Shown here: piece after piece, positions 11,009 through 17,846 of the stretch
Position numbering within the stretch: position 1 is the stretch's first letter
Layout: every line of letters begins with the position of its first letter
Assembly (NCBI RefSeq): GCF_016429285.1
Contig: NZ_JAELUI010000058.1
Coordinates: forward strand, 1-32,877
Direction: 5' to 3'
DNA length: 32,877 nt
From: Ralstonia sp. ASV6
GTDB lineage: Bacteria > Pseudomonadota > Gammaproteobacteria > Burkholderiales > Burkholderiaceae
Notes under the pieces: model-generated
What the model was told of the DNA's origin: nothing
The model's input: the letters and a program-made list of their open reading frames with translations, nothing else
Database searches by the model: none
Program-made: the position numbers and the translations under genes

Positions 11009-11782
11009 ATGAAAACAGTCATTCTTGCCGGCGGCCTGGGCACGCGCATCAGCGAAGAGTCGCACCTCAAACCCAAGCCGATGATCGAGATTGGTGGCCG
11101 CCCGATCCTGTGGCACATCATGAAGATCTACGCGGCCCATGGCATCAACGATTTCATCATCTGCCTGGGTTACAAGGGCTATGTCATCAAGGAGTACTTC
11201 GCCAACTATTTCCTGCACATGTCGGACGTGACGTTCGATATGTCCAAGAACGAAGTGACCGTGCACGAGCGCCATGCCGAGCCCTGGCGCATCACGCTGG
11301 TCGACACCGGCGAGCAATCGCAGACCGGTGGGCGCCTGAAGCGCGTGGCCGCTTACCTCGATCCGAACGAGCCGTTCTGCTTCACCTACGGCGACGGCGT
11401 GTCCGACATCGACATCACCAGCAAGATCGCCTTCCACCGTGAACACGGCAAGATGGCCACGGTGACGGCCGTACAGCCCCCGGGGCGCTACGGCCTGCTC
11501 CAGCGCGACGGCACGCGCGTGACCGGCTTTACCGAAAAGCCACCCGGCGACGGCGGCACCTGGATCAACGGTGGCTTCTTTGTGCTCAACCCATCCGTCA
11601 TCGAATACATCGCGAGTGAAGACACCCCCTGGGAAGGCGCGCCAATGGCGCGTCTGGCCGAGATGGGCGAACTGAACACGTTCGAGCACCACGGCTTCTG
11701 GCAGCCGATGGACACGCTGCGCGACAAAAACAGCCTGGAAGCCCTGTGGCAATCGGGCAATGCACCGTGGAAGCAATGGTGA
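11009..11782 (+). CDS. rfbF: Glucose-1-phosphate cytidylyltransferase
   Basis: Makes CDP-glucose from CTP and glucose-1-phosphate, the first committed step of CDP-deoxysugar synthesis. The 257 residues match the family length. Features include the nucleotidyltransferase signature LAGGLGTR (6-13), KPKPMIEIGGRPILWHIM (about 21-38) and the family-specific segments CFTYGDGVSDI (metal-binding Asp in YGDG) and WINGGFFVLNP. Together with the dehydratase gene that overlaps its stop (TGATG), this firmly places the pathway on CDP rather than dTDP or UDP. Confidence 0.95.
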   Translation: MKTVILAGGLGTRISEESHLKPKPMIEIGGRPILWHIMKIYAAHGINDFIICLGYKGYVIKEYFANYFLHMSDVTFDMSKNEVTVHERHAEPWRITLVDTGEQSQTGGRLKRVAAYLDPNEPFCFTYGDGVSDIDITSKIAFHREHGKMATVTAVQPPGRYGLLQRDGTRVTGFTEKPPGDGGTWINGGFFVLNPSVIEYIASEDTPWEGAPMARLAEMGELNTFEHHGFWQPMDTLRDKNSLEALWQSGNAPWKQW

Positions 11783-12873
11783 TGCTCAACCCTGTCGCCT
11801 GGGCCGGCAAACGCGTCTTTCTGACCGGGCATACCGGCTTCAAGGGAAGCTGGCTGGCCTTGTGGCTGCGCCAGCTCGGCGCAGAGGTCTACGGCTACAG
11901 CCTGGCGCCGGAAACGCTTCCGAGTCTCTTTACGCTGGCCGATGTGGAATCCACGCTGGCAGGTCACACGCTGGGCGACATCCGCGATGCGGATGGTTTG
12001 CACAAAGCCATGACAGCCGCGCGGCCCGATGTCGTCTTCCACCTCGCTGCACAGCCGCTGGTGCGCGCGTCATACAAAGACCCGGTCGCCACTTACGCCA
12101 CTAACGTGATGGGCACGGTAAACGTACTGGAGGCCGCACGCGGCTGCACGAACCTGTCGGCCATCGTGGTGGCCACCACCGACAAGTGCTACGACAACCG
12201 CGAGTGGGCCTGGGGCTACCGCGAGACCGACGCCCTGGGCGGCCATGACCCCTACAGCGCGTCCAAGGCGTGCGCCGAACTGGTGGCCGCAAGCTACCGG
12301 CGCGCGTTCTTCGCCAACGGCCCGCTGCTGGCCACCGGCCGCGCAGGCAATGTCATTGGCGGCGGCGACTGGTCGGAAGATCGGCTCATCCCCGATGCCG
12401 AGCGCGCGATGCGTGCCGGTACGCCATTGGTCATCCGCTCGCCACACGCCACGCGGCCGTGGCAACACGTGCTGGATTGCCTGCACGGCTATCTGGTGCT
12501 CGCACAACGCCTGCTGGCGGGCGATGCCTCTTGCGCCACCGCCTGGAATTTCGGCCCGGACAGCGCGGCCACGCGCACCGTCGAACAGGTACTGCAAGGT
12601 CTGCAACAACATTGGCCCGCGCTGATCTGGCAGTTGGATACCAACACCGCCACGGGCAAGCACGAGGCCGGCATGCTGCATCTGGACGCCAGCCGGGCAC
12701 GCCAGCAACTCGGCTGGCAGACAGCGTGGTCGTTCGAAACCGCGCTGGAGCACACCGCCGCCTGGTACCGCCAACTGCATGACAAGACAGCGGATGCGCG
12801 CACGCTGTGCGACCAGCAGATCGACCGTTTCACCGCCGTCGCATCGACTGCCACATCCAGGAGCGCTGCATGA
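11782..12873 (+). CDS. rfbG: CDP-glucose 4,6-dehydratase
   Basis: An NAD-dependent short-chain dehydrogenase that converts CDP-glucose to CDP-4-keto-6-deoxyglucose. The 363-residue product has the Rossmann motif GHTGFKG at 16-22, HLAAQPLVRASYKDP (about 87-101), the catalytic TTDKCYDN (132-139) in which Asp and Lys stand where the dehydratase acid/base residues are expected, and the YSASK tyrosine-lysine pair at 158/162. I prefer the ATG at 11782, which shares a base with the rfbF stop and lies 8 nt after GGAAG; an ATG at 11776 is too close to that site. Confidence 0.95.
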   Translation: MLNPVAWAGKRVFLTGHTGFKGSWLALWLRQLGAEVYGYSLAPETLPSLFTLADVESTLAGHTLGDIRDADGLHKAMTAARPDVVFHLAAQPLVRASYKDPVATYATNVMGTVNVLEAARGCTNLSAIVVATTDKCYDNREWAWGYRETDALGGHDPYSASKACAELVAASYRRAFFANGPLLATGRAGNVIGGGDWSEDRLIPDAERAMRAGTPLVIRSPHATRPWQHVLDCLHGYLVLAQRLLAGDASCATAWNFGPDSAATRTVEQVLQGLQQHWPALIWQLDTNTATGKHEAGMLHLDASRARQQLGWQTAWSFETALEHTAAWYRQLHDKTADARTLCDQQIDRFTAVASTATSRSAA

Positions 12874-16624: not shown

Positions 16625-17136
16625 TTGCGCGCGGCTCACTCCTCCTGCGGGAATGGCGCGAGAGCGATATCCCGCAACTGCTGCCGCTGCGCAACGATGT
16701 GCCGACGCAGCTGCAGTTGATGACACGCCCGCGGCCCAACTCCGCCGCCAGCGTGCGCGACTGGCTGATCGGAAAATCCAAGCAGAGTGAGGTCGTGCTG
16801 TTCATCATCGCAGCCCAAGCGGATGACAGTGTGCTGGGGTATCTCCAGTTGAACCACATTGATGCGGTCAACCGGCACGCCTCACTCGGCATCTGCCTGG
16901 CGTCGTCCGCGCAGGGCCGGGGCCACGGACGCGCGGCGTGCGAAGCCGCATTTGCCTATGCCAGCGAGACCCTGTGCCTGCGCAAGATCACGCTGGAAGT
17001 GCTGGCAGAGAACACGCGCGCCATCGCGCTGTATCAGAAGCTCGACTTCCGGCATGTTGGCACGCTGAGCGGCCACTATCTGCAAGACAACCGCTGGCAC
17101 GACGTTGTCCTCATGGAGCGGATGCTGGCGCCATGA
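16621..17136 (+). CDS. GNAT-family acyltransferase (probable amino-sugar N-acyltransferase)
   Basis: A 171-residue RimJ/RimL-type GNAT protein: LLLREWRESDIPQLLPLRND at the N-terminus, the acyl-CoA loop QGRGHG (98-103) and LEVLAENTRAIALYQKLDF (about 124-142), which is the typical beta-5/alpha-4 region. PseH, which acetylates a 4-amino sugar in pseudaminic acid synthesis for flagellin, has the same overall plan. As the only acyltransferase in the island, it most likely acylates the amino group installed by the DegT enzyme. It is ATGA-coupled to both neighbours. Confidence 0.85.
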   Translation: MIARGSLLLREWRESDIPQLLPLRNDVPTQLQLMTRPRPNSAASVRDWLIGKSKQSEVVLFIIAAQADDSVLGYLQLNHIDAVNRHASLGICLASSAQGRGHGRAACEAAFAYASETLCLRKITLEVLAENTRAIALYQKLDFRHVGTLSGHYLQDNRWHDVVLMERMLAP

Positions 17137-17846
17137 ACGTCGTCATTACACAGCCGATGCTGTTCCCCTGGCGCGGCCTGCTTGAGCAGATCATGCTGGC
17201 GGACGTGCTCGTCAATTACGCCGACGTGCAGTTCTCCAAGGGCAGCTTCACCAACCGCGTGCAGATCAAGGACACCACCGGCACGCGCTGGATGACCGTG
17301 CCGCTGGAAAAATTCCACCTGGGCGCCCGCATTGACGAGGTCAAACCCGCCACCAACGTGGACTGGCGCGCGCAGCACCTGCGCATGCTGGAGCAGGCGT
17401 ACGAGGCCGCCCCCCACGCAAACGACATGCTGGCCCTGGTGCGTACGGTGTACGCGGTGGACTACCCCAACATGGGCGCGCTGGCGCTGGCATCCATGCG
17501 CGCGGTCTGCCGCTACCTGGGCATTGAAATCGACCGCAAGTTTGTCGATTCGTCGGAGCTGGACATCCCCGGCCGCAACAGCGACCGCGTACTCGCCATC
17601 GTGCAGAAGCTACGAGGTGACACCTACATCACCGGGCACGGCGCCAAGAACTATCTGGCCCATGCCGAATTCGAGCAGCACGGCATTACCGTGGCCTACA
17701 TGAATTACGCCTTGCAGCCGTATACACAATTGCATGGCGCGTTCACGCCCTTCGTCAGCAGCCTGGACCTGATTGCCAATCATGGCCCGGCAAGCAAGGC
17801 GTACCTGTGCCCTCAGACCCTTAACTGGCGCGAGTTCATCCAATGA
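17133..17846 (+). CDS. WbqC-family protein
   Basis: A 237-residue member of the WbqC-like family, recognised from the opening VVITQPMLFPWRGLLEQIMLADV and the segments DVQFSKGSFTNRVQIK, WMTVPL and ITGHGAKNYL. The family is common in O-antigen and glycan clusters; I know of no firmly established reaction for it. Its consistent linkage with amino-sugar genes suggests a step in attaching or building an acyl/aminoacyl substituent, but that is inference. The start at 17133 forms an ATGA overlap with the GNAT gene, and its stop overlaps the next start in the same way. Confidence 0.88.
   Translation: MNVVITQPMLFPWRGLLEQIMLADVLVNYADVQFSKGSFTNRVQIKDTTGTRWMTVPLEKFHLGARIDEVKPATNVDWRAQHLRMLEQAYEAAPHANDMLALVRTVYAVDYPNMGALALASMRAVCRYLGIEIDRKFVDSSELDIPGRNSDRVLAIVQKLRGDTYITGHGAKNYLAHAEFEQHGITVAYMNYALQPYTQLHGAFTPFVSSLDLIANHGPASKAYLCPQTLNWREFIQ

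What the first reader, a model, noticed from the sequence alone, without database searches (positions are those of the whole stretch)
11009..17846. Possible new CDP-activated 4-acylamino, C-methylated deoxysugar pathway
The order RfbF, RfbG, RmlC-type epimerase, DegT aminotransferase (active-site Lys184, so not the RfbH 3-dehydratase), PhyH oxygenase, C-methyltransferase-like enzyme, GNAT and WbqC does not match the CDP-3,6-dideoxyhexose routes (paratose, abequose, tyvelose, ascarylose), which need RfbH and its reductase. It predicts a CDP-4-amino-4,6-dideoxyhexose, epimerised, methylated and acylated. Flagellin viosamine-type sugars known to me are dTDP-based, so CDP activation would be unusual.
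Basis: partly seen in the sequence, partly recalled or inferred. Interest (0 to 1): 0.85.

Follow-up and report, generated by a model that had tools for sequence, protein, structure and literature searches.

The report
CDP amino-sugar genes beside flagellin
Between flagellum genes of a Ralstonia bacterium sits a gene set predicted to build an unusual nitrogen-bearing sugar, probably to coat its flagella; it looks like a stripped-down version of a widespread pathway that mycobacteria may use for the rare sugar kansosamine, with the carbon-branching gene lost.

Summary
In detail: RfbF, RfbG, RmlC, DegT (Lys184), PhyH, methyltransferase, GNAT and WbqC lie in that order at 11009-17846, inside a Ralstonia flagellar locus. 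RfbF and RfbG exceed CDP-specific cut-offs widely; no RfbH reaches its cut-off in the genome. A CDP-4-amino-4,6-dideoxyhexose, epimerised and N-acylated, is the best reading. 'New' and 'C-methylated' need correction. In 48 of 57 non-Ralstonia loci with at least 6 kb upstream, a related DegT shares the locus with RfbF, RfbG, RmlC and a TcaB9-type sugar 3-C-methyltransferase. One, in Mycobacterium attenuatum, matches the order of listed genes of the M. kansasii lipooligosaccharide cluster, whose unique sugars include N-acylkansosamine. The deepest-branching Ralstonia keeps that C-methyltransferase; the window and 11 other Ralstonia genomes lack it. RmlC residue 138, two places from a catalytic tyrosine, is His or Met in 63 of 66 rows with the C-methyltransferase and in none of 14 non-duplicate rows without one seen. 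So the window probably makes a 3-desmethyl-kansosamine (L-perosamine-like) sugar, further altered by a rare PhyH-methyltransferase pair. Flagellin as target is inferred from position. New variant of a known kind; no chemistry was tested.

The parts
11009..11782 (+). RfbF, glucose-1-phosphate cytidylyltransferase (makes CDP-glucose)
   Evidence: TIGR02623 458.3 bits vs cut-off 300.25
11776..12873 (+). RfbG, CDP-glucose 4,6-dehydratase (start 11776 or 11782)
   Evidence: TIGR02622 494.7 bits vs 278.45; only match over the cut-off in the genome
12870..13448 (+). RmlC-type epimerase; Thr138 (counted from the codon before the start, as) where most relatives with a C-methyltransferase have His or Met
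   Evidence: PF00908 8.1e-63; residues aligned with His63, Lys73, Tyr133, Asp170 of 1dzr are kept (my reading of the alignment; roles recalled); residue 138
13448..13471 (.). Junction where the sugar 3-C-methyltransferase gene of relatives is missing
   Evidence: G013 has it here (L143 7759-8979); 61 of 72 non-Ralstonia loci have it in the locus; not found in the window's genome; junction read
13471..14622 (+). DegT/PerA-like sugar 4-aminotransferase, PLP Lys184
   Evidence: PF01041 5.2e-122; best PDB match perosamine synthetase 3bn1; Lys184
14607..15449 (+). PhyH-family Fe(II)/2-oxoglutarate oxygenase; H136-x-E138 ... H228 as presumed metal site
   Evidence: PF05721; alignment of 7, H136 and H228 invariant, E138 is Asp in one; best solved relative ectoine hydroxylase 4mhr, weak
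15452..16624 (+). Divergent methyltransferase, distant full-length relative of sugar 3-C-methyltransferases, paired with PhyH
   Evidence: PF13489; hhalign 99.3%, 363 columns, 20% identity; weak partial TcaB9 profile match 1.1e-6
16621..17136 (+). GNAT N-acyltransferase (PseH-like), candidate N-acylation of the 4-amine
   Evidence: PF13302 2.5e-18; PseH 66.2 bits, below cut-off
17133..17846 (+). WbqC-family protein, role unknown
   Evidence: PF08889 6.1e-63; no solved relative by sequence up to E 1
17843..19117 (+). GT2 glycosyltransferase (GTb)
   Evidence: PF00535; present in L005-L011, L140, L142, L143
9834..10970 (+). GT2 glycosyltransferase (GTa), candidate protein glycosyltransferase
   Evidence: PF00535; SunS-like 99.9 bits, far below cut-off 350; 55% identical to GTc
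20181..21269 (+). GT2 glycosyltransferase with a TPR match (GTc), paralogue of GTa
   Evidence: PF00535 and PF13428
9429..9770 (+). fliE copy 1, left edge of the island
   Evidence: direct repeats D2 and D3
19130..19459 (+). fliE copy 2, right edge of the island
   Evidence: 86% identical to copy 1 by tblastn

Best explanation
The genes make a CDP-activated, N-acylated 4-amino-4,6-dideoxyhexose, most likely of L-manno (L-perosamine) or a near configuration, for transfer to flagellin by the adjacent GT2 enzymes. Steps: RfbF makes CDP-glucose; RfbG makes CDP-4-keto-6-deoxyglucose; RmlC epimerises it at C5 and possibly C3; DegT transaminates C4; GNAT (with or without WbqC) acylates the amine; PhyH and the divergent methyltransferase add a coupled hydroxylation and methylation to the sugar or its acyl group; GTb, GTa and GTc transfer it. 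The pathway derives from a widespread CDP-kansosamine-type module (RfbF-RfbG-RmlC-3-C-methyltransferase-DegT). In most Ralstonia with the island the 3-C-methyltransferase was lost, so the sugar should be the 3-desmethyl form, and RmlC carries a change near its catalytic tyrosine that goes with that loss. Shown: gene content, homology, presence and absence pattern, residue change. Inferred: every reaction product, stereochemistry, order of steps, loss rather than gain, and flagellin as acceptor.
For: CDP enzymes far above equivalog cut-offs. DegT best matches perosamine synthetase, Lys184. Of 57 non-Ralstonia loci with at least 6 kb upstream of DegT, 48 carry RfbF, RfbG, RmlC and C-MeT in the locus, and the same 48 are all that carry the first three; 41 of the 57 have the exact order RfbF-RfbG-RmlC-C-MeT-DegT on one strand. 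A profile of 12 such C-MeT finds D-mycarose 3-C-methyltransferase 4rv9 at 1e-90 and TcaB9; 3 of 3 scanned carry both C-MeT Pfam domains. M. attenuatum L044 reads RfbF, RfbG, RmlC, C-MeT, DegT, ATP-grasp, epimerase, TylF-type methyltransferase, PKS, in agreement with the five genes MKAN27440, 27445, 27450, 27475 and 27485 of Table 1 of PMC4403928, a cluster whose unique sugars are fucose and N-acylkansosamine. G013, deepest branch in the midpoint-rooted FliG-FliF tree of 12 Ralstonia loci, keeps C-MeT; of 16 Ralstonia genomes only G009 and G013 have it (G012's weak hit is its MT), while 13 of 16 have the island DegT. RmlC residue 138: His or Met in 63 of 66 C-MeT+ rows, T/S/N/V in 14 of 14 non-duplicate rows with no C-MeT seen (87 of 98 loci given had a readable residue). 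The island lies between fliE and fliD in all 10 island-bearing Ralstonia whose flanks were held, of 13.
Against: RmlC 3- versus 5- versus 3,5-epimerase cannot be told by sequence here, so L-manno is a guess from kansosamine (structure recalled). The residue-138 pattern rests on about three independent groups without C-MeT, one of which (L051) has a cut-off upstream, and 3 of 66 C-MeT+ rows break it. A related RfbF-RfbG-RmlC-DegT set without C-MeT exists on a Pacificitalea plasmid, so absence of C-MeT is not unique to Ralstonia. 9 of the 57 loci lack one or more of RfbF, RfbG, RmlC. Only 7 of 72 non-Ralstonia DegT loci have a flagellin-like gene within the held flank, so the module is not specific to flagella. 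PhyH, MT and WbqC have no characterised close relative among solved structures.
Confidence: 0.6

Rival explanations
1. The divergent methyltransferase has taken over 3-C-methylation, so the product is still a kansosamine-like C-methyl sugar.
For: It aligns full length with the C-methyltransferases, N- and C-terminal parts included, and its His217 aligns with the invariant His217 of the C-MeT family.
Against: It co-exists with the true C-methyltransferase in 7 non-Ralstonia loci and in G013, so it should have another job there; RmlC residue 138 differs when the true enzyme is absent.
Confidence: 0.2
2. The sugar goes into O-antigen or another surface glycan, not flagellin.
For: The same module sits next to an LOS-type PKS in mycobacteria and a C-MeT-less form in a plasmid locus with a flippase and many glycosyltransferases; GTs of this type cannot be assigned by sequence.
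Against: The island sits between fliE and fliD in all 10 island-bearing Ralstonia with held flanks and in the variant genome G009; none of the 12 island proteins scanned with Pfam is a polymerase or flippase.
Confidence: 0.2
3. The island is a relic or makes no defined product since losing the C-methyltransferase.
For: Absence of a core enzyme and of an O-methyltransferase that relatives keep.
Against: The ten proteins GTa to GTb are 77-98% identical between the window and L005-L011, with open frames in the window, and RmlC shows a consistent change.
Confidence: 0.05

Closest known systems
Putative N-acylkansosamine genes of the Mycobacterium kansasii LOS cluster (MKAN27440-27475)
   Same: RfbF-RfbG-RmlC order and a DegT 63-64% identical in M. 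innocens, M. attenuatum and M. persicum; LOS cluster table in PMC4403928 (passages and section 11 seen)
   Different: Mycobacteria keep the 3-C-methyltransferase, and L044 has ATP-grasp and a TylF-type methyltransferase; the window lacks these and has PhyH, MT, GNAT, WbqC and a flagellar setting. The paper does not assign the CDP genes to kansosamine in the parts I saw; that link is my inference
CDP-3,6-dideoxyhexose pathways (paratose, abequose, tyvelose, ascarylose)
   Same: RfbF and RfbG
   Different: No RfbH over cut-off in the genome; DegT keeps the PLP lysine
dTDP-viosamine-type flagellin sugars (Pseudomonas syringae, Burkholderia cenocepacia; recalled)
   Same: 4-acylamino-4,6-dideoxyhexose idea, flagellin target
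   Different: CDP enzymes, plus an RmlC epimerase
GDP-perosamine synthesis (PerA)
   Same: Closest solved aminotransferase
   Different: GDP-mannose, D-series, no epimerase (recalled)
TcaB9 / D-mycarose 3-C-methyltransferase
   Same: The relatives' gene that is missing here belongs to it; the window MT is a distant full-length relative of that gene
   Different: Window MT has 20% identity in that alignment and no Methyltransf_13 or _14 match at E 0.1

Membership tests
CDP-kansosamine-type module (named here) | RfbF and RfbG of the CDP type | tested here: met
   sequence only
CDP-kansosamine-type module (named here) | RmlC epimerase and PerA-like 4-aminotransferase with PLP lysine | tested here: met
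CDP-kansosamine-type module (named here) | Sugar 3-C-methyltransferase in the cluster | tested here: not met
   absent from window, not found in genome
CDP-kansosamine-type module (named here) | Product is a 3-C-methyl-4-amino sugar | not testable with these tools
   needs MS and NMR
CDP-3,6-dideoxyhexose pathway | RfbH 3-dehydratase (His in place of Lys) | tested here: not met
CDP-3,6-dideoxyhexose pathway | Reductase partner of RfbH | not tested
   not searched
Sugar 3-C-methyltransferase (for the window MT) | Methyltransf_13 and Methyltransf_14 domains | tested here: not met
   at E 0.1 for the window member; one of 7 members reaches each weakly
Sugar 3-C-methyltransferase (for the window MT) | Same architecture over the full length by profile alignment | tested here: met
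Flagellin glycosylation island | Located among flagellar genes with glycosyltransferases | tested here: met
Flagellin glycosylation island | Flagellin carries the sugar | not testable with these tools
   needs MS

The most novel reading that the evidence does not exclude
A CDP-activated flagellin sugar: CDP-L-perosamine-type, born by loss of 3-C-methylation from a CDP-kansosamine pathway, with RmlC changing at residue 138 in step with that loss, and carrying a so far unseen substituent installed by a dedicated PhyH-methyltransferase pair (hydroxylation then methylation, or oxidation to a ketone followed by C-branching).
Probability: 0.3. Interest if true: 0.7.

Novelty: new variant of a known kind. 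Interest (0 to 1): 0.5.

Why it matters
It proposes genes for N-acylkansosamine synthesis and shows the same CDP module in records named as Proteobacteria, Planctomycetota, Verrucomicrobia, Chlorobiota, Cyanobacteria and mycobacteria (many are metagenome bins). In Ralstonia, related species would carry chemically different glycans (full set; C-methyltransferase lost; O-methyltransferase also lost; or amine genes replaced by a reductase-type route), a natural series that makes the role of each enzyme testable by mass spectrometry. Flagellin is a target of plant and animal immune receptors, so variation of the coat may matter for recognition.

Tried and rejected
RfbH-type 3-dehydratase reading: rejected by Lys184 and no match over cut-off. 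Window MT as an ordinary TcaB9 enzyme: doubted because the Pfam domains are missing and because it co-exists with the true enzyme. Single-sequence PDB searches of MT (best 6e-4) and WbqC (none) gave nothing useful. RfbG: no column separated loci with and without C-MeT (9 of 12 Ralstonia rows present). Seven DegT columns (S8, V94, M206, N209, R230, I231, T362) and one further RmlC column (S56) also separated them; G013 shares T362; I did not map them on a structure and draw nothing from them. Sigma-70 scan found 0 sites where shuffles gave 2.6, terminator-like sites 14 against 8.9; not used. Papers: 'flagellin glycosylation' + 'CDP-glucose' gave one review (12 passages seen), which describes no such pathway in those passages; 'CDP-glucose' + '3-C-methyl' + '4-amino' gave none; 'kansosamine' gave one paper (passages, section 11); 'L-perosamine' + 'biosynthesis' + 'CDP' gave none; 'glucose-1-phosphate cytidylyltransferase' + 'flagellin' + 'methyltransferase' + 'aminotransferase' gave one on Bacteroides (listing only); Ralstonia flagellin glycosylation gave listings with nothing on this locus by title. 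The library holds only open-licence papers, so absence is weak. The B. cenocepacia flagellin paper was not held; what I say of it is recalled.
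Full report
What is there. The window comes from a Ralstonia-like genome (closest named loci Ralstonia sp. A12, SET104 and R. pickettii). From left to right: fliG, fliF (minus strand), fliE, GTa, RfbF, RfbG, RmlC, DegT, PhyH, MT, GNAT, WbqC, GTb, a second fliE, a MarR regulator, GTc, then fliD and flagellin (flagellar names other than flagellin are my reading of the ORFs). RfbF and RfbG pass the CDP-specific NCBIfam equivalog cut-offs by about 158 and 216 bits. The epimerase keeps the residues aligned with His63, Lys73, Tyr133 and Asp170 of Salmonella RmlC (alignment; catalytic roles recalled). 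DegT has Lys184 and scores best against perosamine synthetases among solved structures. No RfbH is over its cut-off in the genome. In the PhyH alignment H136 and H228 are invariant in 7 of 7 and E138 is Asp in one.

The core is widespread and usually includes a C-methyltransferase. A scan of genome contigs with DegT gave 79 loci, 7 of them in the Ralstonia group (one is titled Burkholderiaceae bacterium 26). Of the 72 others, 61 hold a sugar C-methyltransferase, 57 RfbF, 54 RfbG and 60 RmlC (several contigs are short). Of the 57 others with at least 6 kb upstream of DegT, 48 hold all four, and no locus among the 57 has RfbF, RfbG and RmlC without the C-methyltransferase. The order is RfbF-RfbG-RmlC-C-MeT-DegT on one strand in 41 of the 57; in 4 more the C-methyltransferase precedes RmlC, in 2 RfbG lies downstream, and the rest are rearranged or lack parts. 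It is a true sugar 3-C-methyltransferase by sequence: a profile of 12 of them finds D-mycarose 3-C-methyltransferase at 1e-90 and TcaB9 at 4e-85, and 3 of 3 scanned members carry both C-methyltransferase Pfam domains.

Link to kansosamine. In M. attenuatum (L044) the order is RfbF, RfbG, RmlC, C-methyltransferase, DegT, ATP-grasp, epimerase, TylF-type methyltransferase, polyketide synthase. Table 1 of PMC4403928 lists for M. kansasii MKAN27440 glucose-1-phosphate cytidylyltransferase, 27445 epimerase/dehydratase, 27450 rhamnose epimerase, 27475 methyltransferase and 27485 polyketide synthase; it does not list the genes between 27450 and 27475. The text suggests that the glycosyltransferase genes without M. 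marinum orthologues add the unique sugars fucose and N-acylkansosamine. I recall kansosamine as a 4-amino-4,6-dideoxy-3-C-methyl-2-O-methyl-L-mannose; the module fits that sugar step by step. The assignment is mine: the only held paper that names kansosamine does not make it in the parts I saw.

Loss in Ralstonia. Thirteen of 16 Ralstonia genomes have the island DegT at 80% identity or more. G013, whose branch is deepest in the midpoint-rooted FliG-FliF tree of 12 loci (the root is for drawing only), has RfbF-RfbG-RmlC-C-methyltransferase-DegT-PhyH-MT-GNAT-WbqC-O-methyltransferase-GTb-fliE. In the other 12 the C-methyltransferase is missing at that junction, and a search of all 16 genomes with G013's own copy finds it only in G013 and G009 (the weak G012 match is its MT). 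A methyltransferase of the RMNT_CmcI family between WbqC and GTb is present in G013, and an ORF of the same length stands there in G011 and L011; WbqC and GTb abut in the window and L005-L010. G009 keeps the C-methyltransferase and the O-methyltransferase, but in that locus has no DegT, PhyH, MT, GNAT or WbqC; it has a hexapeptide transferase and an SDR instead. G002's contig ends just after GTa, and G003 has no FliG match, so these two are undecided. In the DegT tree the 12 Ralstonia form a group starred at 99 with G013 outside it, and Janthinobacterium and Silvimonas loci that have the C-methyltransferase and flagellin-type genes come next with support 89 (quick tree, SH-aLRT only).

A matching change in RmlC. 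Two RmlC columns separate the 12 Ralstonia from 54 C-methyltransferase-bearing loci; one is residue 138, two places after the tyrosine aligned with Tyr133. Over the 87 of 98 loci with a readable residue, it is H 57, M 6, V 2, I 1 in the 66 with the C-methyltransferase, and T 17, S 2, N 1, V 1 in the 21 without; removing seven duplicate genomes leaves 14 (T 11, S 1, N 1, V 1). The two non-Ralstonia cases are a Pacificitalea plasmid with rfbF-rfbG-rfbC-DegT and no annotated C-methyltransferase in the stretch and L051, cut off upstream. The solved epimerases shown in the alignments have A, C, V or T there. A 3-C-methylated ketosugar has no hydrogen at C3 to epimerise, so an epimerase that meets it should act at C5 only; the change fits a return to an unbranched substrate. 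This is a correlation over about three independent groups.

The PhyH-MT pair. MT is rare: at E 1e-40, 4 of 398 genomes drawn over the phylum and 15 of 299 in the family, own genome included in both (at most 4 or 6 candidates were scored per genome). PhyH is next to it in 8 of 8 non-Ralstonia loci and in the 13 Ralstonia; L078 has a 25% identical relative without PhyH that I did not count. In 7 of the 8 the true C-methyltransferase is present too (L051 is cut off). MT aligns with C-methyltransferases over 363 columns at 20% identity (hhalign 99.3%). A tandem copy occurs in G576. The pairing suggests coupled chemistry, but I cannot say on which carbon or whether on the acyl group.

Target. In the 10 island-bearing Ralstonia whose flanks I held (of 13), the island lies between fliE and fliD; elsewhere 7 of 72 loci have a flagellin-like gene in the held flank. 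Flagellin is therefore the likely acceptor in Ralstonia, not of the module in general.

Verdict. The pathway's core is not new, and the C-methyl step is the one that this lineage appears to have lost.

Noticed in passing
window 9429-9770 and 19130-19459; 9834-10970 and 20181-21269: The island is bracketed by two fliE copies (86% protein identity) and two paralogous GT2 enzymes (55%); the Ralstonia without the DegT island (G009, L140) shows a single fliE.
   Followed up: partly
L140 5882-12951 (G009): A variant island between fliE and fliD: RfbF, RfbG, RmlC, C-methyltransferase, RMNT_CmcI, GTb, hexapeptide transferase, SDR; predicts a neutral C-methyl 6-deoxy sugar instead of an amino sugar.
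   Followed up: partly
L040, L044, L073: CDP module in M. innocens, M. attenuatum and M. persicum; in L044 it lies beside a PKS, suggesting gene assignments for N-acylkansosamine.
   Followed up: partly
L160 6206-9735 (NZ_CP021410.1): rfbF-rfbG-rfbC-DegT with no C-methyltransferase between them on a plasmid of Pacificitalea manganoxidans.
   Followed up: partly
L159 (NZ_CP117022.1): Brachyspira hyodysenteriae plasmid with a 56% identical DegT beside several ATP-grasp proteins, a radical SAM protein and a methyltransferase, but no annotated rfbF or rfbG in the stretch shown.
   Followed up: no
G000:C352 21000-21404 and 32170-32580: Two more flagellin-type genes lie on another contig of the same genome.
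   Followed up: no
L139 9307-11634 (G576): Two MT copies in tandem beside PhyH, with flagellin- and fliD-like genes nearby.
   Followed up: no
window 9834-10970: GTa resembles SunS peptide S-glycosyltransferase (99.9 bits, cut-off 350), hinting at a protein glycosyltransferase.
   Followed up: no
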